Assembly: GCA_030998015.1 (NCBI GenBank)
Contig: JARWMV010000021.1
Location: forward strand, 1-64,000
Reading direction: 5' to 3'
DNA length: 64,000 nucleotides
DNA from: Ceratorhiza oryzae-sativae
Lineage: Eukaryota > Basidiomycota > Agaricomycetes > Cantharellales > Ceratobasidiaceae
How positions within the stretch are numbered: position 1 is the stretch's first letter; each line of letters opens with the position of its first letter. Of this stretch, positions 26,241-50,330 are shown piece by piece. The notes beneath the pieces were generated by a model. That model saw nothing but the letters and a program-made list of their open reading frames with translations, was not told the DNA's origin and ran no database searches. The position numbers were made by a program, and so were the translations under genes.

Positions 26241-26248
26241 CTTCCCCC

Positions 26249-27846: not shown

Positions 27847-27851
27847 CAATT

Positions 27852-29245: not shown

Positions 29246-30027
29246 TGTTGTGACCCTCTGGATGCTTCCTTGCGAAGCACTTAAGTAGTGGCTGCATTGA
29301 TGGTTTGGTGCTATGCAGTATGTATTGGGTGTTCTTGTTACAGTGTTTGCTATGGTCTATGGTGGTTGACAAGATAAAGCAAGCTGAGGCGTCCAGTCTT
29401 GCTTTATCCCTCTTACATATGCCTGTGGCTGTGGTGGCTGCAGATGTATTATCTAAGCACACTCCGCAGTAGGTGTAGGTTATGTACAGTACTATGGGTT
29501 AGGTAATTGTTTGTCTAAAGTTTGTGCAGCTCCAAATCTTATAGAGCCATGCAAGGTCCAAGGGGTAGGCGCTGAGGTCACATGATCCTGCTGTAAGCGC
29601 CAAGATCATGTGACAACTTGCTCCTTGCTCCAAGTAACAATGGAGAGAAATGCTGGAGCAAGTTCAGGGTAACCACCATAAGCGCTGAGGCCACATGATC
29701 CTGTTATAAGTGCCAGGATCACATGACAACTTGCTCCTCACTCCAAGTAACAAGGGAGAGAAATGCTGGAGCAAGTTCAGGGTAACCACTGTAAGTGCTG
29801 AGGTCATGTGATCCTGCTGTAAGTGCCAAGATCATGTGACAACTTGCTCCTTGCTCCAAGTAACAAGGGAGAGAAATGCTGGAGCAAGTTCAGGGTAACC
29901 ACCATAAGCACTGGTTAAGCGCCAAGGTCATGTGACCTTGTTTATGGCTTGTTCTGCTTAGGAAAAATGCCATAAATCTGTAGAAATATTTGGTTATTTT
30001 GTTATGTCTGTTTGACAGGTCATAACA
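29246..30027 (-). repeat. 3' LTR of element C
   Basis: 782 bp, plus-strand ends TGTTGTGACC and GGTCATAACA. It contains three copies of a 113-bp tandem unit (starts 29571, 29684, 29797), each with ATGATC/GATCATGTGAC-type short inverted words; the 5' LTR has only two. A TATA-like box lies in the CATATG/ATATA area opposite 29416-29424. Confidence 0.85.
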
Positions 30028-30043
30028 TTATCCCCCCCTTTGG
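30028..30043 (-). promoter_or_regulatory. Polypurine tract of element C
   Basis: On the minus strand, CCAAAGGGGGGATAA directly abuts the TGTTATGACC start of the 3' LTR, the normal place for the second-strand primer of an LTR element. It ties the neighbouring cargo to the element. Confidence 0.8.
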
Positions 30044-30093
30044 ACATGTCTTGGGGGACCTTGAGACATGGTTTAGATCCTTATGCAAAAAGG

Positions 30094-30220
30094 AATCTCA
30101 TGCACCAAGGAGGTTAAGGGCACTGGACTTGAACCAATGACCTTTCAGCTGATTCAGTATTGTTCGATGAGGTCAGGCTGAGTCAGGCTAGACCCCTTAA
30201 CCTCTTTGTTACATGAGATT
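30094..30220. repeat. Imperfect inverted repeat with a tRNA-like B box
   Basis: 30094-30124 and the reverse complement of 30190-30220 agree over about 30 bp (AATCTCATG...AGGTTAAGGG). On the minus strand the loop includes GGTTCAAGTCC, the T-arm/B-box consensus, with a possible 5-bp T stem (ATTGG/CCAGT) and acceptor-like TAAGGGG/GCCCTTA. No acceptable anticodon arm, so not called a tRNA gene; may be a tRNA-derived relic. Confidence 0.45.
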
Positions 30221-30337
30221 GTTTTTCTTTTCTTTGTTGTGGAGGTTATTTAGGGGTGAGGATTCATCTGCTTCTTCTCAGAATGCCCCAACTGTTTGGA
30301 TGGGCATAGCAGAAGTTGTACAATACAGTAAATAATT

Positions 30338-31693
30338 CTAAGGGAATACAAAGAATGGTTTTCCTCCTGCATACACCCATTCTACATTTCTTGATACCCA
30401 TAAGTCCCCTTCTTCCCCCTCTATGTCTGACCAACACTTCATGATTGCCAACTGGCTATTTCCCAGAATAACTGTCAGCCGTACCTTCATTGATTTCACA
30501 TGCACATACCTGCCTGTGAAGTCCACCTTGTACTGGCTCAGGGCCTTGAGCAAGTACTTCCTGTTTGACTGGACCATGTTGTTCAGGATCCAAATGTCAG
30601 CATCTTCTGACAAGTTGCCCACATTCCACACATTGCACATCCAGCTGTGGCAGCCCTTGGATTGTGCATATGCCATTTTCCCTGTTCCAGTTTCTCCTTC
30701 TATCACCAGGATGTGATGGCGCACCCCTCTTCCCCTCTTCTCAACCTCCTCAGCAAACCATCTGTCTGCTCAGTTGATGTGCTCCCAGTCCTCCAGGACC
30801 TCTAACTCCACAGGGATTGCAGGCATGCAACCCTGGTCTTCCTTGTATGTGTACTTGGCATATGCTCATACTGAGTTCCATGTTGTCACCATCTGGAGGG
30901 GGTGGAGGTGCTTGAACACCTGGTAGTACTCCTGTTTTGTCACCTCAGCAACAATCTCTGTCCCATCCTCCAAGTCTGCCTCCATCCTTGACTGTTTTCC
31001 ACCCTTTCCCTTCACCAAGATCTCCTCCAACCTTTCCAAGGTCAGGTCCCCTGCCATCAAATCCTCTATCTCCTCACCATTAGCTCCAACATCCTTCCAG
31101 AGATAGTTGAAGGCATCCCTTGCTGGGTTGCCTCCTGGCCTGTCCTTGAGGTCTTTGGGCTGCATGTTGGGGTGTTGCCCCTTGAAGTCCCAGAACCCTG
31201 TGTTCTGGGTGTTCCACCTGCCCTTCCATTCCTGACTGATGGAGAGGGCATGGACATGCAGGGGCTGGGTTGGGTTGTAGTTTGGCTCCTCTGGGTTGTG
31301 CCGTTTGACCACAGCTAAGGTTGCCCAGTGATTGGGCCAGTGGCAGCAGAACACCTTGTATTGGGCAGCGAGCCCACTTGAGGGCTGATCATGTAGCTTC
31401 AACCAGGTCAGCAGCACTGCCCTGGTCTGGACACAGAATCGGGGGGCCCATGCAGTTTTGGTTGGCTCTTCGGACCCACGATCTGTCAGTGTAAGCTGTG
31501 TAGAAGCGGGTGAGGGGGCTTGGCTTGATTCCAAGGGTGCCAGCAATGGCAATGCCAACCTCTGCCCTGTGCTTGATTCATTTGGCTGGGGTGTTCCCAC
31601 ATTTGAGCCATCTTCGCTTAGCATTGTTGGTGTTTTTTGAGGTAGATGTGTCTTGTGGGGAGGGCATGAAATGATAGCCCCTTTTACCCCCAA
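30338..31693 (-). pseudogene. Rep-like protein of CRESS ssDNA replicon type (HUH endonuclease + SF3 helicase), inactivated
   Basis: One minus-strand frame of about 450 codons, broken by two in-frame TGA codons between the endonuclease and helicase halves (30866-30868 and near 30775). A Ser/Pro-rich N-terminal extension of about 80 residues precedes the nuclease. Motif I is near residue 92 (AVLLTWLK), motif II is HVHAL (His146, His148), and motif III is YLWKD (Tyr197, Lys200). The helicase part has the P-loop GETGTGK followed by Met where Ser/Thr is usual, a Walker B-like DADIWILNN and a TVILGN strand. Such proteins nick and unwind circular ssDNA replicons (geminivirus/genomovirus lineage), and endogenised copies are known in fungi. 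It stops about 310 bp short of the element's 3' LTR. The Walker change and stops indicate loss of function. Confidence 0.75.
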
Positions 31694-31842
31694 AGGTGTC
31701 CCCTAGATATACCCTTTTCTGGTTGTTGTGATCACATGGTTTCCTGATGTAGGCTTGTGCTGGTTATGATGCATCTCTGAGGGGTGCCCTTCCTGTATTC
31801 CCCTGTGTTGGCCTTTCTCCTTGCTACACTTGGGGCCTCCAC

Positions 31843-32419
31843 TGTTATGACCCGCCTAGCAGACATAACCTAACAACCAAATATTGTACAGATTTATGGC
31901 ATTTTTCCGAAGCGGAACAAACCATAAACAGGATCACGTGATCTCGGCGCTTATTCAGCGATTAAGCGCCGGTGGTTACCCTGAACTCGCTCCAGCGTTT
32001 CTCTCCCATGTTACCTGGAGCGAGGAGCAAGTTGTCACATGACCTCGGCGCTTATTCAGCGATTAAGCGCCGGATGCTTAAGTCCAAAAAGGTCACATGA
32101 CCCTCAGACCTTGCGCGGCTCTATAAGATTCGGAGCCGCACAAACTTAAGACAAACAATTACCTAACCCATAGTACTGTACATAACCTACACCTACTGCG
32201 GAGTGTGCTTAGATAATACGTCTGCAGCCACCGCAGCCACAGGTATATATAAGGAGGATAAAGCAAGACTGGATGCCTCAGCTTGCTTTATCTTGTCAAC
32301 CACCATAGACCATAACAAACACTGTAACTAGAACGCTCAATACATACTGCATAGCACCAAACTGTAAACGCAGCCACTACTTAAGTGCTCCACAAGGGAG
32401 CCTCCAGAGGGTCACAACA
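31843..32419 (+). repeat. C-family solo LTR between Rep-like and cysteine-rich genes
   Basis: 577 bp from TGTTATGACC to GGTCACAACA, opposite in orientation to element C's own LTRs. TCCAC (31838-31842) versus TCCGC (32420-32424) is a target duplication with one mismatch. It has kept many CpG sites (GGCGCTTATTCAGCG words), unlike its surroundings, so it looks younger. It carries one 113-bp-type unit rather than two or three. Confidence 0.85.
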
Positions 32420-32731
32420 TCCGCTCCTCCACTTTGGTCAGTGCCCCCTCTCCAACCACTCCAGTAGTTAGGGGATAGTGTATATTCATGTGACTAGGCT
32501 AGGTCATGTGATTCCTGTGCTTTGTTGTTTGTTTTCTGGCAGGTGGTCACATGACTAGGCTAGGTCACATGATTCCTGTGCTTTTGTTGTTTGTTTTCTG
32601 GCAGATGGTCACATGTCCTTTGGTGTCACCTGACCAGACCTTGTTTTGATGTTTGTGCAAGTTATTGTGTTGCACTGTGATCTTTTAATGTTTGTGGTTT
32701 TGTTGTTTTCCTTCCTCATCCTGTCTTTACT

Positions 32732-33264
32732 ATGTGTGTTATTTCCCTTAACTACAATCCCCTTGACTGCACCTGCTGGTCTCTCCTTGAGGGGGAGTAC
32801 TGTGCCTACTGCAATGCCATGTGCAACGCCTCCCTTGAAGACTTCTATGGAGGTGTTGGGGATTGGTTCTTCTGTGGGGTGCCAGGTATGTGTGCTTGTT
32901 CTTCGTTGTTCTCATGTTGCTAACTTGTTCTGTAGAAGAGTGCATCCTCCTCAATGGTCGGGCCCATGAGGCCACCCTTGAGCATGTCTGGGTGCTCGTT
33001 GATCAGGACTACAAGTCCTTTGAGGAGCAGTCTCACCAGGCTGCTCTTGCTGAATTCTTTGAGGAGGGCTCTGCTCCCTTGTTTGATGAGGCTTCACCCT
33101 TTGCAGTGTCTGGTTCTGTGTGTTTCCAGAACTACATGGCTGACTTCCCAGGGGGGGAAGCCCCTTGGCTGCAACCCACTACCCAGTCAGTTGTTCAGAC
33201 CAATAAGAAGGATAAGAAAGGCAAGAAGCCCTATGTTGAGTGTACACACAATAAGACTTGCTGA
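32732..33264 (+). CDS. Two-exon cysteine-rich protein, 160 aa, inside element C, antisense
   Basis: Exons 32732-32885 and 32936-33264 with a 50-bp intron (GTATGTG...CTGTAG) give 161 codons including stop, with an open frame despite the decay all around. The first 51 residues have seven cysteines, including CAYCNAMC, and many aromatic residues (LEDFYGGVGDWFFCGVP). The second exon is acidic and ends in a Lys-rich stretch (TNKKDKKGKKPYVE). No signal peptide. Family not recognised; a small zinc-binding or nucleic-acid-binding protein is conceivable. It is divergent from the Rep-like gene, an arrangement reminiscent of ambisense circular replicons, but it does not look like a capsid protein. Confidence 0.55.
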
Positions 33265-33603: not shown

Positions 33604-34550
33604 TCATATGGGGGCTGGTTCCAACAGTGGCACCTCCTCCAGAGCTTCGACAAGCTTGTTTTCCCACCAGTCCCAGTTCTGTTTGGCTTCCTCTGCAGCT
33701 GGGTCCAGGGTGGGTTCCTTTATTACTGGCTTGGCTTCTTCCTCAGCCACAACCAGTGATTCTAGGCTTGATGTAAGGCTTGTCATATTGGTGTCGTAAT
33801 TGGTGTCTTTGTTTGGGTGCACCTTCACCCAATTTTGGAAGTCGCTCATGTTTGCCTGCTTTGTCCTGATAGCAGTAAACAGCTCATCAGTGGTAGTTGC
33901 TTTGAGCAGTCCCACATACAGTGTGGCCAGTGTCAACTTCCATTCTTCCAACAATGCCTTGGCCCAGCACTCCACTTCCCAGTCCCCCCCTGTCTGCCAT
34001 TTGGCCTGTGGCCCTCCTCTGTTGTCTTGCTGCCTTGGCCACCATGTTGACTGTTGGTCCCACAATATTGTCAATGACATACATCAGTGTTCTTAGCAAG
34101 GCATTTCTTGTTGTTGGCTTCCAGCTTCCATGCCATATCAGGACCCCTAACCTGGGATCCAGGTACTTGTCATCATCAATCCAGTTCCTTTCATCCCTTA
34201 ACTTCTTTGGGATGTACACTGGGTTAGCCCCTGGCAACAGTTGCTCGGCATACCTCTGGGTGTCTTCCACGCTGGAGCAGTACATCCCTAGTTTAGGGCA
34301 ATTTTCCCTGCCAGGGTAGGGTGCTGGCCACCTAGTGGTGGGTGGCTGCCAAAGTGGGACCACCTGATTTTCAGCAAGTGGCATGTAACAGTTGGGATGT
34401 GCAATTGGGTGAGTGATGAAAGGCATGTTTTGGGGTTTTGCAGGTGTATTGTGGTGCAAGTGAGGTGGTAGAGCAGGCTCTGGCCTTTCTTGGGTATCCT
34501 GGATGGCTCTTTTTAAAGCTTTCCAGGTCCTTGTTTGGTTCTCTTTGGCC
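33604..34550 (-). pseudogene. Extra 3' ORF of element C, downstream of the chromodomain
   Basis: Two overlapping minus-strand frames (about 34550-34000 and 34080-33604) read as one protein of about 300 residues with a frameshift near 34040-34080. Visible blocks are WQPPTTRWPAPYPG, YIPKKLRDERNWIDDDKYLDPRLGVLIWHGSWKP and EEWKLTLATLYVGLLKATTTDELF; the tail is acidic and Trp-containing. No transmembrane segment or signal peptide, so it does not look like an envelope protein even though it occupies that position. Its start overlaps the end of pol in another frame. Function unknown. Confidence 0.55.
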
Positions 34551-35541
34551 TGCCTTTCAAGTCACCTGAGTGCTGACTTGTCTTGACTGGCATTGGTGCA
34601 TCTGGTAAGCACCTTTGCAAGTCATTTAGAACCTCTTTCATGTCAGCAAACTTGCTGGCACATTCCATTGTGTCTTCTATTGGGTTGTAGCCCTTCCATC
34701 TGATTTGGTAAAACAGCTTGCCATTCCGCCATTCATAATTTGCAATGTGGTCCACCTCATACTCCTCCTCTCCTTCTTCTGTTATGATTGGTGGTGGTTT
34801 GGCCTGCCTTCTTTGGAAGTCTTTATCTTCTGTGAATGGCAAGAGGAGGTTTACATGGAATACATTGTGTACATGTATGGTTTTAGGTAGGTTCAGGCAA
34901 TATGCATGGGATGAGATCTTTTCTGTGATTTCAAAAGGGCCCCCTTTTTGGTTGTACAATTTCTTGGAGGGTCTCTTGGACAAGAGGTTTGTTAGGAGCA
35001 GCCAAACCTTGTCTCCTACCTTGAATTCCCTCCCTTTCTTTTCCATTTGTTGGTGTAATTCCATTGAGGCTCTTGCCTCATCCCATACTTTTTCCATTTG
35101 ATTACACATGTTGTCTGCAGTGGGGGCCTCAGACAGTTCTTCTCCCTCTTGGACAACCCATCTTGGGTTTTTTCCATATACCATTTCAAATGGGGTTTGT
35201 CCTGTTGTAGCATTTACATGGTTGTTATGGCAGAATTTGGCAATGGGTAACCATTTTACCCAATCATCTTGTCTATAATTGCAGAAGGTTCTTAACAACC
35301 CTTCTACCCATTGATTAGTTCTTTCCAACAGTCCATCTGTTTCTGGATGGAAAGCGGTGGAGAATCTGGGCTTTCTCCCAATTCCCTTGTATAGGGCTTT
35401 TAGGAATTGGCTGTTAAAGGTTGGCCCTTGGTCTGAGACAGTGGTTTCTGGGGTCCTGTGATGTCTCCATACCTCCCTTATGAATATTTCTGCCAGTTCT
35501 TCTGCATTGGTGCTCTCCAGACATGGTACAAAATGGGCCTG
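34513..35541 (-). pseudogene. Element C pol, 3' part: integrase core and chromodomain
   Basis: Continues from 43789 across the B1 insertion (TSD GCCTG on both sides). The integrase core has a second catalytic Asp in TVSDQGPTFNSQF (about 35430) and the Glu region in a HPETDGLLERTNQWVEG block (about 35320), then the GDKVWLL strand, a VHNVFHVNLLLPF block and a chromodomain EEYEVDHIANYEWRNGKLFYQIRWKGY at about 34750-34660. It ends at 34513. A Gly-to-stop-like change near 35330 splits the open frame. Confidence 0.85.
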
Positions 35542-36825
35542 TGTTATGGATCACTAACATTTTCTATTATTTTAGTCTGCTCTGCCAACCTCAAGCAATG
35601 CCTCTGTAATTAAATTGTGAAATACTCGAATTTGTATGCGCTCTGAATTGTACTATTTTCTGTTCCATTAAATAGTACAAATCTCCCGCTCTCCAACGCA
35701 TATTTTATTAAGATTTTACGATAAGATCTCAGAGAGATACAGAGGTTGCGATATTTCCTCCTATCAGGAGATATTGATTACAACATCGCACCGCTCATAT
35801 CTCGGCAACCGCTTACGCTATCAAAGCGATCTTGTGCTCTATCGATAGCTAATCTTCGGCGGTATCTGCTGCCCGAAGATCGTCGCGATCCACCGGATCC
35901 TCGCGCCGGAATGGCCCGAAGATCATTAGAATCTTACTGGACCATCAATCAAGATCTAATGACTCCAGTGAGTCAGGAGAGCTTCCCAAGTTGATCCAGA
36001 AGCTTCTCTGACTCACTTTATGACTCACTGAGATGTAGCCTCTGTTCATTACATGTATATACTATGATAATATGATCTACAAGCCAATAGCAGGTCTCAG
36101 ATGCATCAATGCCTTCGATCCACACCCTGTCTTTACTCTTTTATCCTATACTGGGCTAGGGTGTACCCCAAGTATAGCAGTACCCTCTTTTGATGATCGC
36201 ACTGGCATGCATGTATCTATTTGGCTCTGGAATGCCCTCCTCAGGGTATAAAAGGTCCTCCTCTGAGGCCCTTCCAGACCACCTCCTTCACTCCTCTACT
36301 CAACCCAGACTGGTTATTGGTTTCTTTTCTCTTTCTATTTCTCTTGTCTGTATGTGATTTCTTATATAACTAGTACTGAGGAATAAAGTACCATATTAGT
36401 TATATACTGTCTGAGACATTGTATCTTATATACAGAGATATATAAGGATACAATATTGCCTGATTGAGCGTGACATTAAGTACCAGCTATTAGAGGAAAT
36501 CTAAGTACCTGTAGCTGAGGAAGTACACGCATTAGGCAGCCCACCATCTATCCTATAAGCAATCGCTTAAGCCTAGTATTAAGATTAGTATCAGTTAGTC
36601 CAAGCGACTAGGGCTGAACTACATTTAAGATATCTAAGGGAACCTGACCATAGTAGTCTTGCTCTTTATACCTATAAATTAGTCAGTTTACACTGTGAAA
36701 GATTAAGACTACCTTGAGTGTTACTTGATCGCATTGCAACTATTTTGAGCCTTCTTACTCTAGTCTAAGAAGTATTGAGTACGATTAGTGTATACTAACA
36801 TATCTACATTTGCTTAAGCTCTAGA
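35542..36825 (+). repeat. LTR B1, left part (solo LTR, 1.3 kb family)
   Basis: Starts TGTTATGGATCACTAAC and has a promoter-like GGGTATAAAAGG at about 36245. It is interrupted at 36825 by element A and resumes at 43757 (after the duplicated CTAGA) to end at 43788 in ...CTAACA. GCCTG lies at 35537-35541 and 43789-43793. A CpG-rich core at 35790-35910 encodes part of an 82-codon frame (35746-35994) that is nearly identical in copy B2. Confidence 0.85.
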
Positions 36826-37201
36826 TGTCATGAACTGACACGCATATATCCACTCTATAATATTTTCTTGATTTACTACATTTTACAAGATCATCTTCAA
36901 AACATACTTGCCTTTTATGGTATATCTGTGTCATGTGACTCATGGAATGTTCCGGACCGGTAACCAAGATGTATTTCAACTCCAATGTGAAATTCCGCAG
37001 TTCTGCAGTCGCTTCTACTGCTTCTATCTCTCATCTGTTGTGACTCACTGTACAGACTTGTTTGTTATGATGTGGCTCATACTATGTATATAAACCAGGT
37101 CAAGTTCGCAGAGGACTCCTCAAGAACTTGACCTCTTGTCAAATACAAGTTCTTTTATTTTCTTACCATTTTCCTCATCGCCTGACTTGTTGTCGTCAAC
37201 A
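36826..37201 (+). repeat. 5' LTR of element A
   Basis: TGTCATGAACTGAC to CGTCAACA. TATATAAA at 37087-37094 is the probable promoter; transcripts should start near 37112-37125. Confidence 0.9.
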
Positions 37202-37203
37202 TC

Positions 37204-37217
37204 AGGTCAAGTTCTTG
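37204..37217 (+). promoter_or_regulatory. Self-complementary primer-binding site of element A
   Basis: AGGTCAAGTTCTTG, 2 nt after the LTR, is the exact complement of CAAGAACTTGACCT at 37121-37134, just downstream of the LTR TATA box and so at the predicted start of the transcript. No tRNA 3'-end complement (TGG...) is present. This matches self-priming as established for Tf1 of fission yeast. Confidence 0.75.
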
Positions 37218-37499
37218 ACAATCGTAAGTCTCAGTGTCGTCTGGGATACTTTTGGAACGCCGTTGGCGTCGTCTTGAGATAACTCCTTGTTGCCTTCCCC
37301 AATCCCACTCCACCTATCCACAGCCACGAGATATCGTTGCCCTATACGCACCTCTGTGAAACCTTGCATAGCCAGGTCCCTCACACGTCGTAACAAGCTT
37401 CGGTTCTCTAATCTCTTTCGTCAACAAGAGGTGGGGTCGCTCATTGCCCTTAAGTAGCTGAGCAACAGAGGTCACCTTCCTATTCCAATAGACTTGGGA

Positions 37500-38463
37500 A
37501 AGGGTCTATTTTTCCTTTTATCTTGCTCTTGCTCAAGTACGTCTCTGATGGAACGCACGGCCCTCAAGTGGCACAACCTTTTACAGAAGACCAGCGCTGC
37601 CATCTGTGTGGGTGGTTCAGACACCTGTCGATCCACTGCTTCACCCTCAACTTGGTCAAAAGTATCCTTGAAGAAGCTGGGCACATCGATTTCAACTGAG
37701 TAGTAATCATCAAAGTCTGCCCCCAGAAAGTCGGACGTGCTCAACAAGCCTTTGTCACCGAGCCAGGTGCCCCTGAGTGCAGCATTTGCCATCGGGCAAA
37801 CGGAGCCACCTTCCCAGCGCGCTGCCCTTATTGTCCTAAGAAGGACAAATTCCTTTATTACTACACCATCCCCCGCAACCAGCTATAAGCTGGAGAACCT
37901 CGGCCAACAACTTCTTCGTCACCTGCTAAACACTATCGAAAATTTCCAAGACAGGTACTGTTATTACCGGAACAAGTACGAAGAAACCTGTGAAAAACTT
38001 CACAAATCTGAGGCCTGTTGCGCATACTTAACCGAGCGTTTGCGCGAACACCAGGAGGACTACCTATCCCTCCTCCAAGACCATCTCAGACTAGAAGCTA
38101 TAGTCCAAGAAACAATTGAACCCCATGAGTACGCCTTCCCTGTCTTCTCAACACCGTCAGACCTCCCTCACCCCACCTTTTTAAGTGGCACAGGCTTGCC
38201 AATTCAGGAAGAAGCACCCCTTCCAGCAGCCCAAATCAATTCTCCCCAAGGAAACACTCCTGCGGGACCAAACTAAACTAAAAAGGGTGGAGTGCCCATA
38301 TCATTGCCAAGACACCAAAAGTTGGGACTTGGACGACACCTGGTTAAGATTCGCAGGGATCAAAAACTTTGAAATTTATAGACTCGTGCAGGGAACAGAA
38401 ATCCTATACTACCAAAACAATTCCCAATTCCCTGTACTTCCTTATCGCCTATGTCGCTTTTAG
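37500..38463 (+). pseudogene. Pre-gag coding region of element A (zinc-knuckle and coiled-coil ORFs)
   Basis: Three overlapping frames between 5' LTR and gag. Frame 1 (about 37500-37890) has CHLCGWFRHLSIHC, a CX2CX4HX4C knuckle, then a second Cys pair set CSICHRANG...CPYC; in this copy a TGA replaces a Cys codon near 37698. Frame 2 (to 38276) is a long charged helix (ENFQDRYCYYRNKYEETCEKL... EHQEDYLSLLQDHLRLEAI), probably coiled coil. Frame 3 (38185-38463) ends TKSWDLDDTWLRFAGIKNFEIYRLVQ. All three recur in the copy at 61774-62780, which suggests real coding sequence, possibly joined by splicing or frameshifting. Confidence 0.6.
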
Positions 38464-39876: not shown

Positions 39877-42800
39877 GCTCAAACCGTGCCAGGGGGGCAG
39901 TCTTGGGCGCTATGTTACAAAATGCGCATAACGAAAATAAAAATATGGGAATGGAATGTATGTCGTTAGGAAACCAATCACAATTACAGTTTTTCTTCCA
40001 TGCATTCCCTCTGCGCATAACCCCTGAACGCAAGTCTGCATATAACATGAAAAAATTCAACGGATGGGCCATGATCGATTCAGGGGCCACATCAGTATTT
40101 ATACATGAAAACTTGGTTAAACAATACCGTATTCCTACCGTCGCCCTAAAAACACCCAAGAAACTGAGGGTAATTGATGGAAGGGAGATAGACTCTGGGT
40201 CTGTGACCCATTACTGCACCTTTGAGTTGTGCATTCAAGAGCACCGAGAAATCCTCAGTGCCTACGTTGTGAATGTTGGCAAAAATGATTTAGTCCTGGG
40301 CATGTCATGGCTCAAATTCCATAACCCCGATATTGATTGGGATGGGAAAGACATGAAGTTTAACTCACCAATATGCCTGAAGCACTGCATCACAAAACCC
40401 CTGCATGTGCAAGCAAATGAACCTAAGGAGCTTCAGTTGGACTCCCTAGACTCCCTCCCAACAAAATATGAAGAATTCCAGAAAATATTCGCTGAAGAAG
40501 ACGACATCCAACCATTACCACCCCATAGGAAGTGGGATATGGAAATAGATTTAAAACTGGATGCCAAGCCAAGGCACAGTCCCATATATAGTGTGGGTGT
40601 CAAGGAAGATGCAGAATTGCAGAAAACCCTGGACTGCCAACTGAAAGCAGGGCATATCAGACCCTCAAGGTCACCAATGGCATCCCCAGTCATATTTGTC
40701 AAAAAGAAGAATGGGAAGTTGCGCATGTGCATTGACTACCGGCGACTAAACGAAATGACAGTCTCTAATGTGTACCCACTCCCGCGCATCAATGATATTG
40801 TGGAGACTCTGTGTGGGGCAAAGATATTCACCAAGTTTGATCTAAAGTGGGGCTTCAACCTCATACGAATTCGGGAAGGGGACGAATGGAAAGCAGCTTT
40901 TAAGACCAAGTATGGGCTTTAGTCATGCAATTTGGTCAAAAGAACGCACCAGGAACCTTCATGGCCATGATCAGGGAAGAGTTCCAAGACATCGAGGGCA
41001 TTTATGTGGTAATCTATATGGATGACATATTAGTATTCTCCAAAAACCAGGAAGAACACGATGAACATGTCAAGGAAGTCTTATGTCGCCTTCAAAAAGC
41101 TGGCCTATATTGCGCTCTGGAAAAATGCGTCTTTGATGTCACTGAAGTCGATTACCTGGGAATAGTAGTGACTCCCCAGGGAATTAAAGTAGACCCAGCC
41201 AAGGTTGAAAAAGCTGTTGAATGGCCAACCCCTACCAACCCAACCGAAGTCCTGGAAGGGTTGGGGTTTGCAAATTGGTTGAGGCACTTCATAAAAGACT
41301 TTTCGAAAATTACAAGATGTCTTTATGAACTTGTCAAGAAGGATGTAAAATGGGAATGGACAGAAGAAAGGGATCAAGCATGGAATCTGCTGAAGCAAAA
41401 ATTAAAAGAAGCCCCCCTCCTAATCCAACCAGAGCCCAACAAACCATTTATTTTAGAAACCGATGCCTCAGGCTATGCCACAGGCGCTGTATTATTGCAA
41501 TATGGGGAGGACGGAATGCTCCACCCAATTTCCTGTTACTCCAAGGCAATGGTCCCAGCAGAAAGGAATTATGATATCTACAACAAAGAAATGCTGGCAA
41601 TCATAAAGGCCCTCAAACACTGGCGTCATTTGCTAGAAGGGGCTGAACACCCAGTAAACATTGTTTGTGACCACAAGAATTTGGAGTACTGGAAGACAAA
41701 TCGGCCACTGAACGGTCGGATCACAAGGTGGCATGAGTTCTTATCCAGGTTTGAATTCAAGATTCTATATATTGAAGGGGCGAAGAATGGCCGGGCAGAC
41801 ATACTCTCTAGGCTGTCAAGACACATCCCTAAAGAGGGGGGTGAGAGCCAAGCTCTGCTTGCGCAAAACCAATTTTTGGAACTGAAATCACTATGCCTGC
41901 AAGCAATCACACCAGACAATGACCTAGAACAACTCATTAGGGATGCTATCCCTGGGGACGAACACCTATCAAAAGTCCTAAAAGCCCTAGATGACAATGA
42001 GAAGGTCAAAGATTGGGAATGGGACGAAGGACTCTTACGACACAAAGGCAGAATCTACATCCCAAATAACAAAGAACTTCGCAAACTGGTCATTGCAAGC
42101 CGTCACAATAACCCAGCAGCAGGACACCCAGGACAGTTCAGAACATATGAACTGTTAAATCGCAAATACACGTGGTTATCAATGAAAAAATCAGTCAACG
42201 AATATGTCACACACTGCGAGTCATGCATCAGGAACAAGCACAGCAACCAAGTTCCCCCAGGGCTCTTAAACCCAATACCTGCACCAGAAAAACCTTGGGA
42301 GGAAATTACTTATGATCTGATCACCGGGCTACCCCTGTCAGAGGGATTTGATGCCATATTTACAGTTGTCGATCGCCTGACAAAAATGGTCCACTTTATT
42401 CCATGTCAATTGGAAGCCAGTGCTATGGCTTGCGCCAACCTGTTCCTAACATATGTATGGAAACTCCATGGGTTACCACGGAAAACAATCTCAGACCGTG
42501 GCCCCAACTTTGCATCCAAATTCTTAAGGCACTTATACAAACGACTGGATATAAAACCCTCCTACTCCACAGCATACCACCCTCAGACAGATGGCCAGTC
42601 CGAACGGGCCAACCAAGTAGTGGAAGGGTACATCAGACACTATGTATCAGACAGACAAGATGACTGGGTCTCGCTCCTACCATTAGCTGAATTTGCCTAC
42701 AATAATGGTGTCAACACCTCAACTGGCAAATAACCATTCTTTGCAAACTACGGTTTCCACCCAAGGCTAGCAGTTGGGGACAGGGAAGAACCAGAACTCC

Positions 42801-43393
42801 CTTTAGCGGACAACCATGCAGAATGGCTCCAAAAGGGCCATGACGAACTTAAGGCAGCCCTGGAAATAGCAAACCAGAGGATCAAGGAATACTATGACCA
42901 GAAGCATCAGACCCCTGAAGCTATTAAGGTTGGAGACAAAGTCTGGCTTGATACCAAAAACATACGGACACAGCAGGCCTCCAGGAAACTGGCCCACAAA
43001 AGAGTTGGACCATTCAAGGTGGTAGCACAACATGGCACACATGCCTACAAACTGGACCTACTGATAACCATGAAAATACACCCAGTGTTTCACGTCTCAC
43101 TCCTGACCAAATATAAAGACGACCCCTATGGCCGTCAGGTTCCCCCACCACCACCTGTGGTAACTCCTGAAGGGGAAGAAGAATTCGAAGTGGAACAGAT
43201 CATAAAGTCACGATACAACAAAAGATCTAACATCTTTGAATACTATGTCAAGTGGCTCGGCTACGACGAGCAACAATGGTTAACCTATGATGACCTGGTG
43301 AACACGCCAGAACTCATCACCGACTATGTCAAGTCGCACCCAAAGGCACCTCAGGACCCCCGTGCCTTGAAGGGGGGAAGTGTCACGAACTGA
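39873..43393 (+). pseudogene. Pol of element A: protease, RT, RNase H, integrase, chromodomain
   Basis: Starts in an ATGA overlap with gag. Protease MIDSGATS (about 40070); RT with LRMCIDYRRLNEMT and the YMDD box (about 41020); RNase H FILETDASGYATG (41450); H2C2 finger GHPGQ...HCESCIRNK (42120-42240); integrase core YDLITGLPLSEGFDAIFTVVDR, ISDRGPNFASKF, TDGQSERANQ (42310-42610); chromodomain EEEFEVEQIIKSRYN... (43180-43340). The stop at 43391-43393 lies inside the 3' LTR. Two lesions: a net 10-nt deletion at about 40917 relative to 56745-56757, and a TAA nonsense codon at 42731-42733. Confidence 0.95.
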
Positions 43394-43756
43394 CACGCAT
43401 ATATCCACTCTATAATATTTTCTCGATTTACTACATTTTACAAGATCATCTTCAAAACATACTTGCCTTTTATGGTATATCTGTGTCATGTGACTCATGG
43501 AATGTTCCAGACCGGTAACCGAGATGTATTTCAACTCCAATGTGAAATTCCGCAGTTCCGCAGTCGCTTCTACTGCTTCTATCTCTTATCTGTTGTGACT
43601 CACTGTACAGACTTGTTTGTTATGATGTGGCTCATACTATGCATATAAACCAGGTCAAGTTCGCAGAGGACTCCTCAAGAACTTGACCTCTCGTCGAATA
43701 CAAGTTCTTTTATTATCTTACCATTTTCCTCATTGCCTGACTTGTCGTCATCGACA
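43381..43756 (+). repeat. 3' LTR of element A
   Basis: 376 bp, TGTCACGAACTGAC to CATCGACA, preceded by a polypurine tract at 43369-43380. Followed by the duplicated CTAGA. Confidence 0.95.
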
Positions 43757-43788
43757 CTAGATATTCAAGTGTACCCTGACCCCTAACA
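43757..43788 (+). repeat. LTR B1, right end
   Basis: Duplicated CTAGA followed by the last 27 bp of LTR B1 (TATTCAAGTGTACCCTG...CTAACA), matching the ends of B3 and, in reverse, B2 and B5. Confidence 0.85.
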
Positions 43789-43793
43789 GCCTG

Positions 43794-46140
43794 CCAGGAG
43801 AATCAATCTACAACTGTCAAGATGCTGTCGTACCCCTTTGAGACAGGTAATTTGATGATGAAATCATATGTGACATCTGCCCATGGTTTCCATGGGATTG
43901 GTAAGGGCTTCAGGGGAGTGCCTTGTTTGTGTCCTTTGCTTCTTTGACACGTTTCACAAGATTCCATGTATCAGTTTACTTGGGCCTTCATTCCTGGCCA
44001 GTAGTAATCCCTTGATAGTAATTCTAGTGTTTGGGCTTGTCCCTGATCACCTGCCACAGGGGCATCATGGCACTCCTCAAGGAGACTCAACCTCAAGTCC
44101 TTGTCATCTGGGATGTAGAGCCTATTGTCATACCTTAATAGGCCCTCCTTCATTTTGTACCTTCTAAATTCCTTCTGTACTGAGGGCAGTAGTTATTCTT
44201 TATTTGCCACACTCAGCCTTAAGGATCTGATAGATTTGTCTTCTTCCTGAGGTTCTTTAAGCTCCTCCCAGAAATTCCCCTTTACTTCTGCCTTGAAACC
44301 TATGAACCTTTCTTCTGGAATCATGATCTGTGGTTCCATAGGGGTGTCCCCATGGTCACTCCTTCTGGAAAGGGCATCTGGCTTCTGTGAGAGTTTCCCT
44401 GGTCTATACACAATCTGAAAATTGAAGGGTGCCAGAGTGAGATACCATCTGGCATGCCTTCTATTCCACATCTGGGCATTTTGTGAGTACTGGAGGTTCC
44501 TATGGTTGGTGTATGTCACAATAGGTTCCTCTGTCCCTTCTAGGTATAACCTCCAGTGCTCTAAGGACCTAACAATTGCAAGCAACTCCTTGTTGTAGGT
44601 GTCATAATTTTCTCTGGTGGGGTGAAGCTCTTTGATAGGAAGGCAATTGGATGCAATTGGTTGTCATCACCCTTTTGGCTTAGTACCACCCCATGGCCAC
44701 TCCTGAGGTGTCTGTTTCCAGTATGTATGGCTTGTTTGGGTTTGGGTGGATTAAGACTGGTTCTCTTGCTACTGCTTCTTTGATAGCTTCAAATGCTTCC
44801 TGTTGTTTTCTTTCCCACAGGAATTTGACATCTTTTTGAGTGAGATCTGTGAGGGGTTTGGCTAAGGTGCTAACCTTCTCTATCCACCTTCTATAGAACC
44901 CCATGAAGCCTAGGAATGCTTGGACTTCTTTTACTGTGTTAGGTTCTGGCCATTCTAGAACTGCATTTACCTTTTCCTTTTCCATCAATATCCCTTCTGG
45001 GGATATGACAATTCCAATGAAGCTTACCTCCTTCACAAAGAACTGACACTTGTGTGGTTTGAGGAAGAGGTGGTTTTCCCTCATTCTTCTTAACACTTCC
45101 CTGACATGTTGTATGTGTTCTTCCCTGTTTCTGGAAAACACTAGTACATCATCCATGTAGATTACCACATAATCATCTATTATGTCACAGAACCTTTCCA
45201 TCATGAACCTTGTAAAGGTTCTTGGTCCTTCTTTTACTCTGAATGGCATGACCAAGCATTCAAACTGGCCTTCTCCTGTCCTGAAAGCTGTTTTCCATTC
45301 GTCTCCCTCTTTTACCCTGATGTTGTTGAACCCCCATCGAACATCCATTTTTGAATAGATGGTTGCATCCTTCAGTCTCTCAATCAATTCTATTTGGATT
45401 GGAAGTGGAAACCTGTCTGGCTTGGTGATGTCATTCATCTTATGGTAGTCGACTACCAACCTAAGCCCTCCATCTGCTTTGTTCACATAGAAACAGGGTG
45501 CAGCTACAGCTGACTGGCTGGGCCTTATTTTCCTGTTTCTTAGTTCCTCCTCTAGGTACTCCCTGAGCACCTTAGTTTCTGCTGGTGACATACTGTACCT
45601 CTTTGCAGGCTTTGGCAGCTCTGCTCCCTTGATCAGGCCCATTTTGAAGTCCAGGTTACCTTGGTGGGGTGGAAGTTCTCAGAAACCTTCTTCCCCAAAC
45701 AGGTCTTCAAAATCCCTAAATTCTTCTGGGATTTGTAAGCTTTCACTTGCTGCCCTTGCCTTGATTTCAACTGGGTATGAGATGGTAAGGTCTTTCCAAT
45801 CTATGATAGGTTCTGCTTCTTCAAGCCATTCTTTCCCTAGGACTATGTCTGTGTCACCTAGGGTCATCACATAAAGGGAGCATTTCAGTGTCTTCCCTTC
45901 CACTTCAATATTTAGTTCTGCCCTTTCTTCTATGGTGTCCTTGATTTCATTTCCATCAATGGCCACAATTGATTTCTTGTGTTTGAGGGGAGTGGTCAGA
46001 ATCCCCTTTTCCCTTGAATAGGCCTAATCGATGAAGTTGGTTGAAGATCCTGAGTCAATCAGCATCTTTGCTGGTTCCATGATTCCCTCTACCATAGTGT
46101 ATATTATTGATTGATTACTAGACTTCTTGAGGTAACATAC
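43794..46140 (-). pseudogene. Element C pol, 5' part: protease, RT, RNase H, integrase N-terminus
   Basis: Minus strand, read from high to low coordinates. Protease with IDSGSSTNF near 46060 and VMTLGDTDIVLGKEWL near 45850; RT with LRLVVDYHKMNDIT and YMDD (about 45160); start of RNase H (ILETDTSG) and, after a frameshift near 44690 in a G run, its remainder (LAIVRSLEHWRLYLEG... PDALSRR); integrase zinc finger (ESCETC) and VTYDFIIKLPVSKGYDSILTVVD by 43820. At least four in-frame stops (near 46022, 45679, 43968, 43812), several being TGA where family logic expects Arg. Continues at 35541. Confidence 0.85.
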
Positions 46141-47551
46141 ATCTGTGGTAGGGGTTATATCAGGGTCCTCCAACATGGAAGTGGTAGGACCAATTAGTTT
46201 TCCAACTCAGAGCTGCTTTCTTCTTCAACTTGTCTGCTGGCCTTCCCTTGTATCTTAGCTTTGTTGTAGGTCCACTGGCCTTGGCAGTCCTTCAGGATGT
46301 GCCCTGATTTACCGCATTTGATACAGAGTCCTTCTTTCCTTTGCCTGTCTTTTTCACTGTTTGGTATCCTTACCATGTTGTTAGTTTGGGTATTCCCCTG
46401 TTTGCTGCTGGTCCCTGAAGGCTTGTTCCCCCCTTGTTTGTATTTTGCTGGTGCCCAGGTTGAATTTGATGAGTTGCTGGCCCTTGTGTTCATTTTCTGG
46501 TTTGCAAACTGCATGTTGTCCATTTTGCAGGCAAAGTCAATTAATTGATCTAAGGTATATGATGGACCTTCAGCCTCATTTGCCAGTACTTCAATCCTTA
46601 AGATCTCTTGTTGTACTTTGGGTTTTAACCCTTCCCTGAATTGGTCCTTGAGGGCTTCCTGGTTCCAGTCTACCTCTTGGATCAGGATCCAGAATTGGGT
46701 AGCATAATCCAATGCACTCTTGGTTTGTGTTAATTTCCTTAGTTTCCAGATGGTCTTTTCCTTTATGACTGGGTCATTAAAAGCATCCAGGAATCCCTTC
46801 CTGAAATCCTTCCAGGATGCAAGGATCCCTGTGTGTTCACCTGCTAGTAGTTTCCAGCAGTAAGGTTGTGCCCAGTTTGCTGCTTCCCTGTCCTCCATGT
46901 TCATTAACACAGCAGATATCTTTTTTTGGTCATCAAAGGCTGATTTGTCATAGTCAGCAAAGAAAAGTTCCATGCTGATTATGAAGTTCTCTGCTTCCTT
47001 CCCTTTTTTCCCATTAAATTTGCTGGGTCTCCCTAGTTGTGCCTCCTTAGGAGTGTGTTTTGTGGCAAGGGTAGGTTGGTTTGCTTGGGATGGAGGTTCT
47101 GTTCAGGGTCTTATTGTGGACTCAGCCTGGAAGGTTCTTCCCAGAAAGGGAGTTCATACTGGGGAGGCTGAGGGGGATTGTGAGGGGCTTCCTATGACCA
47201 CCCTAGTTCTTCCCCTGGTCTCTTCTGTCCTTTCCCTTGGCCTTCCTGCTTCAGTTGTTTTCTGGAGCTCATTTCCTAGATTGGTTACCTGTTGTTCTAG
47301 TGTGGTCAGGATCTCCCCTGTGTTTTCAGTTTTCTTCTCTAAGCTTTCAAGCTTTTGCTCTTGCATTCCCAGTACCTGGTTTATTTCCATGGAGATGTCC
47401 TTTAATTCTTTTATCAGGTTCCCCATTTCTACTTTTAGGTTGTCCTGGTTCTTTGCCACATAGAGGACATTTTTGTTGGATGTTTCCATTGACCTTACCA
47501 TCCAGTCCATGTTTCCTTCTTGCCAGGTTAGTGATATTTGACACTGACTTA

Positions 47552-49057
47552 CACTGGCTTGAATAAGTCTTGCCTCACGTGACAAGAAAAGCTTGCACTG
47601 CTCATTTCTCCTTGGCTAGTGTAGATATCGACTAGATGTAATAATAGATAATGTACAATAGGCTCTTGCAAATCTATCTGTAAAAAAAACAAAATTACAC
47701 AATGGGATTACCAGGAGTGGCACATATTCTGTTTGTGCATGCTTGAGGCAAGACTTTTGCATGTAAATGCAATTTGGCATTGAAATCATAAATCCTCCAG
47801 AACGGTACACATACATTCAGTCTAACCTAGTAATGAGTATTGTCACCCCTCGCATCTTGCAGCTCAGCCACCCTGAGAGGCATCGAATAATACAGATTCT
47901 GGATCACAGTGGCATTGATGCACTCCCACTCCTCCTTCAGTGCCTCCCACAACTTGTCCTCATTGTGTGGACAAACAGCCCATTTTTGCACCTTGCAATC
48001 CAAGTTGCTCCATACATGTTTGATTATGTTCATATCCGGTGAGTTCAAGGGCCAGGGAAGTACCTTGATGTGTTTTGATTCAAGCCAGAGTCCCCAGAAG
48101 GTCCTCCAATATCTCCATGTACATGACAGCATTCATAATGCCTTTGATTCAATGGAGATGGCCTACTCCATTCCATGTTATACACCCCCACACCATCACA
48201 CTCCCACCTCCATGTTTGATGGTTTTTTTGGTATATCAAGGATCATACGCCTGTCCAGGTTGCCTCCAAATATATTCAAGTCCATCAGAGGAGAATACAT
48301 TGAATTTCGACTCATCAGAGAAGATGACCCAGGCCCACATCAAGGTGTCCCAACTTATATGCTTGGCAGACCAGCCACAACAAGCTGATCTATGCTTATA
48401 TGTCAGGGAAGGAACATGCTGACAACAACGCGCCATAAGCCCTAGCTCTCAAAGATGGCAATGGATTGTGTCAGGGTGGAGGTGAGGGAAGTATTGTTGC
48501 TGTAGCTCAGTGGCATTGCTGTGACAAAGTTTGGACAGTCCAATCAAGGCGAGGCAATTGTCCCTGGCTGTCATTCTGCATGGACAACCTGTACAAATGG
48601 CCTTGGGATATGTTGCACGTGGTTTGAGAAATTGTCGATAAACTCAGTTGACAGTAGTATGATTGACACCGACAATGAGAGCAACCACACTACTCGCAAT
48701 ACCAAGATTCTTCATCATCAAGATTTGTGACTTTTGGGCATCTGTAGTGAACCGTGCCATGGCTAGTGTTCTAGACAAATGTAGGGCAAAGGGATTATAG
48801 TGCTTATGAGTGTGGGAGAACAGAAGAAGAATCAGGTGTATGCAGCCCACATAAGTCTTGCCTCAAGCATGTGCAAACAGAACGCATGCAACTCCTTGTA
48901 ATCCCATCATGTAATTTTGTTTTTTTTACAGATAGATTCACAAGAGCCTATTGTACATTATCTATTATTACATCTAGTCGATATCTACACTAGCCAAGGA
49001 GAAATGAGCAGTGAAAGCTTTTCTTGTCATGTGAGGCAAGACTTATTTGAGCCAGTG
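47552..49057 (-). mobile_element. Tc1/mariner element with 205-bp terminal inverted repeats
   Basis: 1,506 bp flanked by TA (47550-47551 and 49058-49059). The terminal repeats, 47552-47756 and 48853-49057, begin CACTGGCTTGAATAAG and are nearly complementary over 205 bp, with an internal GCCTCA(CG)TGA block. It is inserted into the gag of element C. Long TIRs recall the IR/DR group of Tc1 elements. Confidence 0.95.
47827..48850 (-). pseudogene. Tc1 transposase, frameshifted
   Basis: N-terminus near 48760 (MARFTTDAQKSQILMMKNLG, helix-turn-helix of Tc1 type). Catalytic part: VIFSDESKFNVFSSDG at about 48310-48340 with the first Asp, a GGGSVMVWG-equivalent near 48210, and SPDMNIIKHVWSNLD at about 48020 containing the third acidic region (Ile-Lys where Ile-Glu is usual). 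Several frame changes and stops separate these blocks. Confidence 0.85.
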
Positions 49058-49642
49058 TATACCCATGATTGCCTTTTCTAGTTCCCTATGGTTATTGTCT
49101 CTAAGTTCCTTGAGCCACACCCTGATGGCAGTGGCAATGGTGTGAATAGGGTTGGCAGTGGTTATGGTTCTGGGACCTGGCTGGGGTTGTGTCCTTGCCT
49201 CTTCTGCCAAGGCTGTGCCTTGTTTGTATATGGTTCAGGTCATATCTTCTACCACATCCCTCTCTGGATTTGAGATATCTTCTGGGTCTGGATTTATCAG
49301 GTGAATTGGCAGTTGAGGGCTGCAGAGCAGTATTCCCCCTATTTGCCCTCCCAGGATGGGGGCCCAAGTGGGGTTAGGTTGAGCCACTGGTTGTGGGTTT
49401 TGTGGCAACCCCCCTGGCATTCCTTGGAGGGTCTCATCTGGGTTACCTTCAGCCTCTGGGGAGTAACAGGTTTGGGTGATTGTGGTCTACTATTGGCCAC
49501 TCTGCTTTGATATCAAGTTTGTGGTCTCTGTGACATAGTTTCTTTGTGTTCTCTTATGTATCACAGGAGTTAGCTGGTCTCTTGTGTACTCAGCCCTTAG
49601 TATCTGTGTAGTATACTTATGTTCACCACTAGTTAAGTTAAG

Positions 49643-49654
49643 AGCTTGCTTTAT
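49643..49654 (-). promoter_or_regulatory. Self-complementary primer-binding site of element C
   Basis: On the minus strand ATAAAGCAAGCT begins 2 nt inside the 5' LTR edge. It is the exact complement of AGCTTGCTTTAT (minus strand, 49796-49785), about 30 nt downstream of the LTR's TATATAAG. Same logic as in element A. Confidence 0.65.
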
Positions 49655-49656
49655 AA

Positions 49657-50325
49657 TGTTGTGACCCTCTGGATGCTTCCTTACAAAGCACTTAAGTAGT
49701 GGCTGTGTTGACAGTTTGGTGCTATGCAGTATGTATTGAGTGTTCTAGTTACAGTGTTTGCTATGGTCCATGGTGGTTGACAAGATAAAGCAAGCTGAGG
49801 TGTCCAGTCTTGCTTTATCCTTCTTATATATGCCTGTGGCTGTGGTGGCCATGGATGTATTATCTAAGCACACTCTGCAGTAGGTGTAGGTTATGTACAG
49901 TACTATGGGTTAGGTAATTGTTTGTCTAAGGTTTGTGCAGCTCCGAATCTTATAGAGCTGCGCAAGGTCTGTGGGGTAGGAAATGAGGTCACGTGATCCT
50001 GCCGTAAGCACCAAGATCACATGACAACTTGCTCCTCACTCCAAGTAACAATGGAGAGAAATGCTGGAGCAAGTTCAGGGTAACCACTGTAAGCACTGAG
50101 GCCACTTGATCCTGTTATATGCACCAGGATCACATGACAACTTGCTCCTTGCTCCAAGTAACAAGGGAGAGAAATGCTGGAGCAAGTTCAGGGTAACCAC
50201 CGTAAGCACTGGTTAAGCGCCAAGGTCACGTGGCCTTGTTTATGGCTTGTTCCACTTAGGAAAAATGCCATAAATCCATAGAAATATTTGGTTATTTTGT
50301 TATGTCTGTTTGACAGGTCATAACA
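49657..50325 (-). repeat. 5' LTR of element C
   Basis: 669 bp, plus-strand ends TGTTGTGACC and GGTCATAACA. It differs from the 3' LTR mainly by having two rather than three 113-bp units. Followed by the duplicated GTATG. Confidence 0.9.
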
Positions 50326-50330
50326 GTATG

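What the first reader, a model, noticed from the sequence alone, without database searches (positions are those of the whole stretch)
29246..50325. LTR retrotransposon carrying a CRESS-type Rep gene between pol and its 3' LTR
Seen: GTATG outside both LTRs, a polypurine tract touching the 3' LTR, and a Rep-like gene in the sense orientation about 310 bp upstream of that tract. Known: chromoviral Gypsy elements normally end shortly after the chromodomain. Inference: the Rep-like gene and two further ORFs travelled with, or were inserted into, one chromovirus, giving a chimaera of a retroelement and a rolling-circle replicon gene. A circular DNA intermediate of the retroelement could be a meeting point between the two.
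Basis: partly seen in the sequence, partly recalled or inferred. Interest (0 to 1): 0.9.

Follow-up and report, generated by a model that had tools for sequence, protein, structure and literature searches.

The report
Retrotransposon family carrying a Rep gene
A fungal jumping element of the retrovirus-like kind carries, in nearly every copy looked at, a gene that resembles the replication enzyme of small circular DNA viruses, and selection has kept that gene in shape, which suggests the element uses a DNA-copying trick borrowed from another kind of mobile DNA.

Summary
The window element (29246-50325, minus strand) is a chromovirus with matching GTATG flanks, a purine tract touching the 3' LTR, and a Rep-like gene just before it, here broken by two stops. 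It is one of many: the genome has 165 purine-tract/LTR junctions. Of the 100 listed, 97 have a Rep piece upstream on the same strand; opposite-strand control 0 of 100. Seven of nine copies with both ends in hand have perfect, different 5-bp target duplications, so Rep moves with the element. Nine intact Rep frames show dN/dS 0.088-0.127 between two Rep lineages. Gag-pol is near-uniform; ORF3, Rep and LTR come in recombining alleles. A further antisense gene with an intron is conserved. Named relatives outside this genome are all Ceratobasidium. The CRESS label rests on motif order and a sub-threshold geminivirus-Rep match. No sequence or fold search reached a known CRESS Rep significantly, and no canonical origin hairpin was found. 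Best reading: a captured, selected HUH-type Rep acting on the element's own DNA; that activity is inferred, not shown.

The parts
49657..50325 (-). 5' LTR (669 bp); target duplication GTATG at 50326-50330
49643..49654 (-). putative primer binding site, 12 nt complementary to LTR position 643: self-priming, as recalled for Tf1/sushi chromoviruses
   Evidence: a 12-nt complement in 1 of 2000 shuffled LTRs
46197..47102 (-). gag fragment (Retrotrans_gag, Ty3_capsid over cut-off; zinc knuckle below cut-off)
44683..45678 (-). reverse transcriptase / start of RNase H part of pol
   Evidence: RVT_1 E 6.8e-30
36826..43764 (+). nested LTR retroelement interrupting pol (direct end repeats 98% alike over the 300 bases compared); not part of the described element
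34516..35550 (-). integrase C-terminal part with SH3_Tf2-1 and a chromodomain match just under its cut-off
33607..34512 (-). ORF3 region (300 aa in the C1 copy, here frame-broken), starts after a single stop in the pol frame
32732..32885 (+). exon 1 of a conserved antisense gene
   Evidence: no stop in 39 of 39 loci with a hit, four genomic copies counted twice; pN/pS 0.36 on 30 copies
32936..33264 (+). exon 2 of the antisense gene after a 50-bp GT-AG intron (32886-32935); 160 aa in all
   Evidence: no stop in the aligned part in 36 of 38 loci, several of them aligned only in part; pN/pS 0.31 on 25 copies, first 80 codons
31843..32419 (+). solo LTR of the same family in opposite orientation, flanks TCCAC/TCCGC; secondary insertion upstream of Rep
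30338..31624 (-). Rep-like gene, first Met at 31624, broken by TGA at 30866-30868 and 30770-30772; motifs: LLTW 31403-31414, HVHAL 31244-31258, HPN 31166-31174, YLWK 31094-31105, P-loop 30677-30697, DIWIL 30584-30598, VILGNS 30455-30472
30028..30045 (-). polypurine tract touching the 3' LTR
29246..30027 (-). 3' LTR (782 bp, 113 bp longer than the 5' LTR); target duplication GTATG at 29241-29245

Best explanation
SHOWN: this is a high-copy Ty3/Gypsy chromovirus family whose genome is LTR - gag - pol - ORF3 - antisense two-exon gene - Rep - purine tract - LTR. Rep is a standing gene of the family, multiplied with it and kept by purifying selection. INFERRED: Rep is an HUH endonuclease / superfamily-3 helicase taken from a geminivirus-like replicon, perhaps together with the divergently oriented neighbour gene. 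It nicks the element's own extrachromosomal DNA (for example LTR circles), at sites in the LTR or the Rep upstream region, and so raises the number of DNA copies available for transcription or integration. Roughly 0.95 for the shown part, 0.85 for HUH-SF3 chemistry, 0.4 for action on the element's own DNA.
For: Linkage: 97 of 100 listed 3' junctions have a Rep piece within 5 kb upstream, against 0 of 100 on the opposite strand and 2 of 100 downstream; 40 of 46 RT matches of exactly 483 bp have Rep 3-12 kb downstream on the same strand (opposite strand 0 of 46), against 8 of the 104 other scored RTs. Independent insertions: perfect, different 5-bp duplications in 7 of 9 copies with both ends; LTR pairs 91.3-99.5% alike, the youngest (C57, 99.5%) with an open 453-aa Rep frame. 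Selection: dN/dS 0.088-0.127 between lineages C1/C87/C90 and C57/C32/C232/C235; by region, between subfamilies, pN/pS is 0.73 in the N-terminal tail, 0.33 in the HUH part, 0.22 in the centre and 0.17 in the helicase part. The HUH and Walker motifs lie in CRESS order; key residues are 84-100% conserved against a mean of 79% over all positions. PF08283 (geminivirus Rep central domain) matches 8 of 27 relatives, best E 0.001, from after motif III into the P-loop. The C1 3' LTR has 7 copies of a 21-nt repeat in 113-bp units, and a 60-bp unit is repeated twice upstream of Rep; TCACGTGA occurs 8 times in the 10-kb C1 stretch (one at 443, two upstream of Rep, five in the 3' LTR), expected 0.10.
Against: No CRESS-type nonanucleotide with a stem of 5 or more in the five copies scanned, four of them as partial stretches. 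PF08283 stays below its cut-off, and other families also match weakly (nSTAND3 13 of 27, AAA_22 6 of 27). PF00799 gave no match, but no control genome rang either, so that is uninformative. No solved CRESS Rep among matches at E up to 10 (up to 1; 41, 84, 85 up to 10); no named viral relative among 81 proteins at E up to 10. Both fold models were poor (mean pLDDT 37.5 and 43.8) and found nothing at E<=0.001. TCACGTGA holds an ordinary E-box palindrome (recalled), so the repeats may be enhancers. No expression data and no evidence of circles. Pol has a ratio of means of 0.38, higher than Rep, on a partly different set of copies, so recombination and copy age affect these figures.
Confidence: 0.45

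Rival explanations
1. Rep is a standing gene of the element, but its selected role is on the host: like geminivirus Rep (recalled) it pushes cells to S phase or dampens DNA methylation and silencing, so that the element is expressed.
For: Copies decay mostly by transitions: over the nine LTR pairs 242 of 268 differences are transitions and 204 of 268 lie in a CpG/TpG-CpA context, loosely defined. R. solani AG8 shows CpG to TpG hypermutation (PMC4014442, abstract and passages). An element under such pressure would gain from an anti-silencing protein.
Against: The HUH and helicase motifs are conserved and the helicase part has the lowest pN/pS, which favours an enzymatic role on DNA. A retinoblastoma-binding or methylation role was not tested.
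Confidence: 0.25
2. Rep is kept because it excludes or poisons a related CRESS mycovirus or plasmid (superinfection exclusion) and so benefits the host or the element.
For: Endogenous Reps occur in several fungi and cluster with SsHADV-1 (PMC3198968, passages).
Against: Conserved catalytic residues are not needed for a decoy; no such virus of this host was found here; carriage in nearly every copy points to benefit for the element.
Confidence: 0.15
3. Passenger: one CRESS-derived insertion into a master copy was amplified by hitch-hiking and has no function.
For: Many copies, including the window's, carry stops.
Against: dN/dS far below 1 between Rep lineages, a gradient from tail to helicase, and nine intact frames of 429-454 aa among the copies in hand.
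Confidence: 0.04
4. Secondary nested insertion or assembly chimaera at this locus only.
For: The locus is nested and carries a solo LTR next to Rep.
Against: Same arrangement at 97 of 100 listed 3' junctions and different target duplications.
Confidence: 0.01

Closest known systems
Terminons (giant Penelope-like retroelements of bdelloid rotifers), PMC6431247, passages read
   Same: A retroelement that can carry a rolling-circle replication initiator (Rep) gene; the review says this may point at circular intermediates.
   Different: Terminons are endonuclease-deficient retroelements at telomeres, up to 40 kb; here it is an LTR/integrase chromovirus of about 10 kb with one layout in about a hundred or more copies.
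Geminivirus-like transposon of Tuber melanosporum, PMC3198968, passages read
   Same: Amplified fungal mobile element with a geminivirus-like Rep gene.
   Different: That element has 37-bp terminal inverted repeats, a transposase gene and no obvious target duplication; this one is a retrotransposon with 5-bp duplications.
Chromoviruses of the Tf1/sushi kind (recalled)
   Same: gag, pol with SH3_Tf2-1 and a chromodomain match just under cut-off, 5-bp duplications, self-complementary primer site.
   Different: Three extra genes after pol: ORF3, an antisense two-exon gene, Rep.
Ty3/Gypsy elements with acquired domains, e.g. orchid elements with an RNA demethylase domain (PMC9289625, search listing and start of abstract only)
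   Same: Retrotransposon that fixed an extra functional domain.
   Different: The donor here looks like a virus- or plasmid-type replication gene.

Membership tests
Ty3/Gypsy chromovirus | LTRs with TG..CA ends, purine tract, 5-bp duplication | tested here: met
   the duplication is perfect in 7 of 9 copies
Ty3/Gypsy chromovirus | gag, protease-RT-RNase H-integrase order, chromodomain | tested here: met
   Intact C1 pol: RVP_2, RVT_1, RT_RNaseH, Integrase_H2C2, SH3_Tf2-1 over cut-off in order; rve (29.6 of 32.6 bits) and Chromo (24.4 of 25.1 bits) just under cut-off but in place
CRESS Rep (Geplafuvirales-like) | RCR motifs I, II (HxH), III (YxxK) then Walker A, B and motif C in that order | tested here: met
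   LLTW, HVHAL, YLWK, GxTGTGKT, W(I/V)LDD, ILGNS in order; key residues 84-100% over 26-44 letters per column of a 60-row alignment, mean of all positions 79%; motif definitions recalled
CRESS Rep (Geplafuvirales-like) | significant similarity to a known CRESS Rep profile or structure | tested here: inconclusive
   PF08283 below cut-off, 8 of 27 members, best E 0.001; PF00799 uninformative; no CRESS Rep among PDB matches; Genomoviridae Rep only rank 4, E 0.027, on a poor model
CRESS Rep (Geplafuvirales-like) | GRS-like block (RFxD ... HPNI) between motifs II and III (recalled) | tested here: inconclusive
   RFWDF and HPNI present and 86-98% conserved, but matched by eye against a recalled motif, not by alignment to a virus
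CRESS replicon/virus | origin hairpin with NANTATTAC-like nonanucleotide | tested here: not met
   none with a stem of 5 or more in five copies, partial stretches for four; definition from PMC6186406, passages
CRESS replicon/virus | capsid gene | not tested
   ORF3 has no Pfam match; the antisense protein was not searched; neither was compared with capsids

The most novel reading that the evidence does not exclude
The family is a hybrid replicon: a retrotransposon that adds a DNA phase to its cycle. Its integrated or circular LTR DNA is nicked by its own Rep at the tandem GTCACGTGAYCTCGGCGCTTA repeats of the LTR and amplified by rolling circle, while a captured ambisense cassette (Rep plus an antisense, intron-bearing partner gene) is swapped as a module between element lineages by template switching.
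Probability: 0.2. Interest if true: 0.95.

Novelty: new variant of a known kind. Interest (0 to 1): 0.83.

Why it matters
LTR retrotransposons are thought to multiply through RNA alone. A selected HUH-helicase Rep in nearly every examined copy of a large family means that a second, DNA-based replication step, or a Rep-based handle on the host, has been worth keeping. It gives a system with many intact and dated copies in which the exchange between retroelements and rolling-circle replicons can be studied directly. In the nine literature searches made here, judged by the listed titles and starts of abstracts, no LTR retrotransposon with a Rep gene came up; the nearest are the rotifer Terminons and the Tuber TIR element. 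Most subscription papers and all bioRxiv preprints outside PubMed Central are missing from that library.

Tried and rejected
Secondary insertion and assembly artefact: rejected. Passenger gene: rejected. Helitron RepHel: not supported, since the frames are 429-454 aa while RepHel exceeds 1,500 aa (PMC6431247, passage). A tRNA-like stretch between Rep and the purine tract, guessed by eye, was not confirmed by ARAGORN (bacterial code) or Rfam and was dropped. ORF3 as a CRESS capsid: no support, not excluded. Viral and plasmid collections gave no CRESS comparator: no relative; three irrelevant records at E 9; one search gave 49 stretches, all on contigs of 5 kb or more. Fold prediction failed twice, so the Foldseek lists are not used as evidence. 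PHROGs gave only weak matches, mostly ATPase- or terminase-like (best E 0.008). Dropped before counts: copies whose Rep frame is broken, and the three diverged Rep copies, none of which gave a frame for it; four 60-aa end pieces of the 135 ORF3 matches; five of 35 distinct exon-1 copies and ten of 35 exon-2 copies. Weak PF08283 places outside the family were not followed. An earlier count used 15 of the 140 piece-1 places; one search repeats it with all 140 and gives the same figures.
Full report
WHAT IS IN THE WINDOW. The element reads on the minus strand: 5' LTR 50325-49657, gag 47102-46197, RT 45678-44683, integrase/SH3/chromodomain-like part 35550-34516, ORF3 34512-33607 (frame-broken), Rep 31702-30341, purine tract 30045-30028, 3' LTR 30027-29246. 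Pol is split by a nested LTR element (36826-43764) and neighbouring repeats, an element with 210-bp inverted ends (47550-49059) lies near the 5' end, and a solo LTR of the same family lies in opposite orientation at 31843-32419. In this copy Rep has two in-frame TGA stops.

IS IT A ONE-OFF? No. The two Rep pieces, searched apart, give 140 and 150 matches in the 48.8-Mb, 253-contig genome (lower bounds, because only the best candidates are scored). The purine-tract/LTR junction occurs 165 times and the LTR/primer-site junction 148 times, up to 2 mismatches, with 0 hits for both reversed controls. Of the 100 listed 3' junctions (of 165), 97 have a Rep piece within 5 kb upstream on the same strand, 0 of 100 on the opposite strand and 2 of 100 downstream; 90 of 100 have the end of piece 2 at 232-339 bp. 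ORF3 gives 135 matches; of the 131 places used, 117 have Rep piece 2 downstream within 12 kb (against the capped list of 150). Among 150 scored RTs (of 811 candidates), 40 of 46 whose match is 483 bp long and 8 of the other 104 have Rep 3-12 kb downstream on the same strand; opposite strand 0 of 46.

INDEPENDENT INSERTIONS. For nine copies both ends are in hand. Seven have perfect and different duplications (window CATAC, C57 CACAA, C90 GATTT, C32 TGCTA, C232 CTACA, C76 ACTAT, C96 TATTC, element orientation); C56 and C190 do not. LTR pairs are 91.3-99.5% alike. C57 (99.5%), C232 (98.4%) and C32 (98.1%) have open Rep frames of 429-453 aa. Over the nine pairs, 242 of 268 differences are transitions and 204 of 268 lie in a loosely defined CpG/TpG-CpA context, in line with the CpG hypermutation described for R. 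solani AG8 (PMC4014442, abstract and passages). In five of nine copies the two LTRs differ in length by 92-201 bp, about one or two tandem units.

IS REP KEPT BY SELECTION? Nine intact Rep frames were aligned by codon, 36 pairs. Between C1/C87/C90 and C57/C32/C232/C235, dN/dS is 0.088-0.127 at dS 0.35-0.50. Against C73/C8 it is 0.16-0.37. Within lineages it is higher (0.22-0.48), as expected for young, partly neutral copies. Ratio of means: 0.38 for pol (eight copies, partly other ones) and 0.35 for ORF3 (five copies). By region, between subfamilies, pN/pS is 0.73 (N-terminal tail), 0.33 (HUH), 0.22 (centre), 0.17 (helicase). Caveat: recombination between lineages makes the pairs non-independent.

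MOSAIC EVOLUTION. Against C1, gag-pol is 93-100% identical in the regions that could be compared, while ORF3, Rep 5', Rep 3' and LTR change in blocks: C57 is 98-100% up to the first part of Rep, then 84-92%; C90 is 81-83% in ORF3 and 95-97% in Rep. I read this as template switching between co-packaged RNAs (inference).

THE ANTISENSE GENE. Between ORF3 and Rep, on the other strand, lies a two-exon gene (window + 32732-32885 and 32936-33264, 160 aa). Exon 1 has no stop in 39 of 39 loci with a hit (35 distinct copies, since C8, C56, C73 and C76 were each held twice; one copy is only 55% alike, and three rows do not begin with Met). Exon 2 has no stop in the aligned part in 36 of 38 loci (35 distinct copies), several aligned only in part. 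In the 24 copies used for both exons the intron has GT..AG borders in 24 of 24. pN/pS is 0.36 (30 copies) and 0.31 (25 copies, first 80 codons), the lowest of the six frames of the same DNA, though one opposite-strand frame is close at 0.41 and 0.39. The intron survives because the genomic RNA is the other strand (inference). It is divergent to Rep, as in an ambisense replicon, but its nature is unknown and splicing was not observed.

WHAT KIND OF REP? Relatives: 19 proteins, 56 and 81 at E up to 10. Those with an organism name are all Ceratobasidium; the rest are unnamed (jgi, lgn, ena). Hence the host is probably a Ceratobasidiaceae fungus (Rhizoctonia kin; inference). Motif order I-II-GRS-like-III-Walker A-B-C is met and conserved (motif names recalled). 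Pfam PF08283 matches 8 of 27 members below cut-off, best E 0.001; nSTAND3 (13 of 27, best 0.043) and AAA_22 (6 of 27) match weakly too, as a P-loop would. Nothing else supports the CRESS assignment statistically: PF00799 uninformative, no solved CRESS Rep among matches, poor fold models with no match at E<=0.001 (a Genomoviridae Rep is rank 4 of 422 at E 0.027 in the viral list). So 'HUH-SF3 Rep of geminivirus-like kind' is likely, but membership is not proven.

ORIGIN AND TARGET. No nonanucleotide hairpin with a stem of 5 or more was found. What the C1 copy has instead are LTR tandem units with 7 copies of a 21-nt repeat, a 60-bp unit twice upstream of Rep, and the palindrome TCACGTGA 8 times in the 10-kb stretch against 0.10 expected: one at 443, two upstream of Rep, five in the 3' LTR. 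The 21-nt repeat also occurs three times in the part of the C32 copy searched. They may be Rep sites or plain enhancers.

MECHANISM. Shown: Rep is carried, copied and kept. Inferred: it acts as a nickase-helicase on the element's DNA. The rival is an action on host silencing or the cell cycle. Neither was tested.

LITERATURE. Read in passages: PMC3198968, PMC6431247, PMC6186406, PMC4014442, PMC7926851 (0 occurrences of geminivir-, replication-associated and viral). Search listings only; by title and start of abstract none describes an LTR retrotransposon with a Rep gene.

Noticed in passing
window 32732-33264 (+): Conserved antisense two-exon gene with a GT-AG intron inside the retrotransposon, divergent to Rep; Cys-rich first exon.
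   Followed up: partly
P0033, P0055, P0057, P0062 (whole), P0034, P0051, P0060 (end part): Several unnamed Rep relatives share an in-frame insertion of about 24 codons at one place that looks like an unspliced intron, hinting at a Rep lineage that is not spread by sense-strand retrotransposition.
   Followed up: no
L033 7399-7950: A 184-aa +1 frame overlaps the start of Rep, and some Ceratobasidium AG-Ba gene models (P0011, P0017, P0019) look by eye as if they use it; possible overlapping gene or codon-bias artefact.
   Followed up: no
L033 5348-5350; window 34513-34515: pol and ORF3 are in one frame separated by one stop codon in C1, C32, C90 and the window; read-through or separate start is open.
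   Followed up: no
window 47550-49059: Element with 210-bp inverted ends (92% alike) nested near the 5' end; reverse-strand words look like a Tc1/mariner transposase (by eye, recalled).
   Followed up: no
window 36826-43764: Nested + strand LTR retroelement with end repeats 98% alike; related stretches at 26049-28118 and 56753-59607.
   Followed up: no
window 19871-24153: Large gene with about 17 in-frame 135-bp repeats (TPR_10) next to a CHAT domain: looks like a fungal repeat/CHAT protein.
   Followed up: no
window 53412-53753: Another LTR end of the same family with the TGTTATGACC start at 53753.
   Followed up: no
G000:C242:160346-160474 and C68:68292-68420: Weak PF08283 matches (15.7 and 15.1 bits, E 0.5 and 0.8) outside the Rep family; possibly unrelated endogenous Reps or chance.
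   Followed up: no
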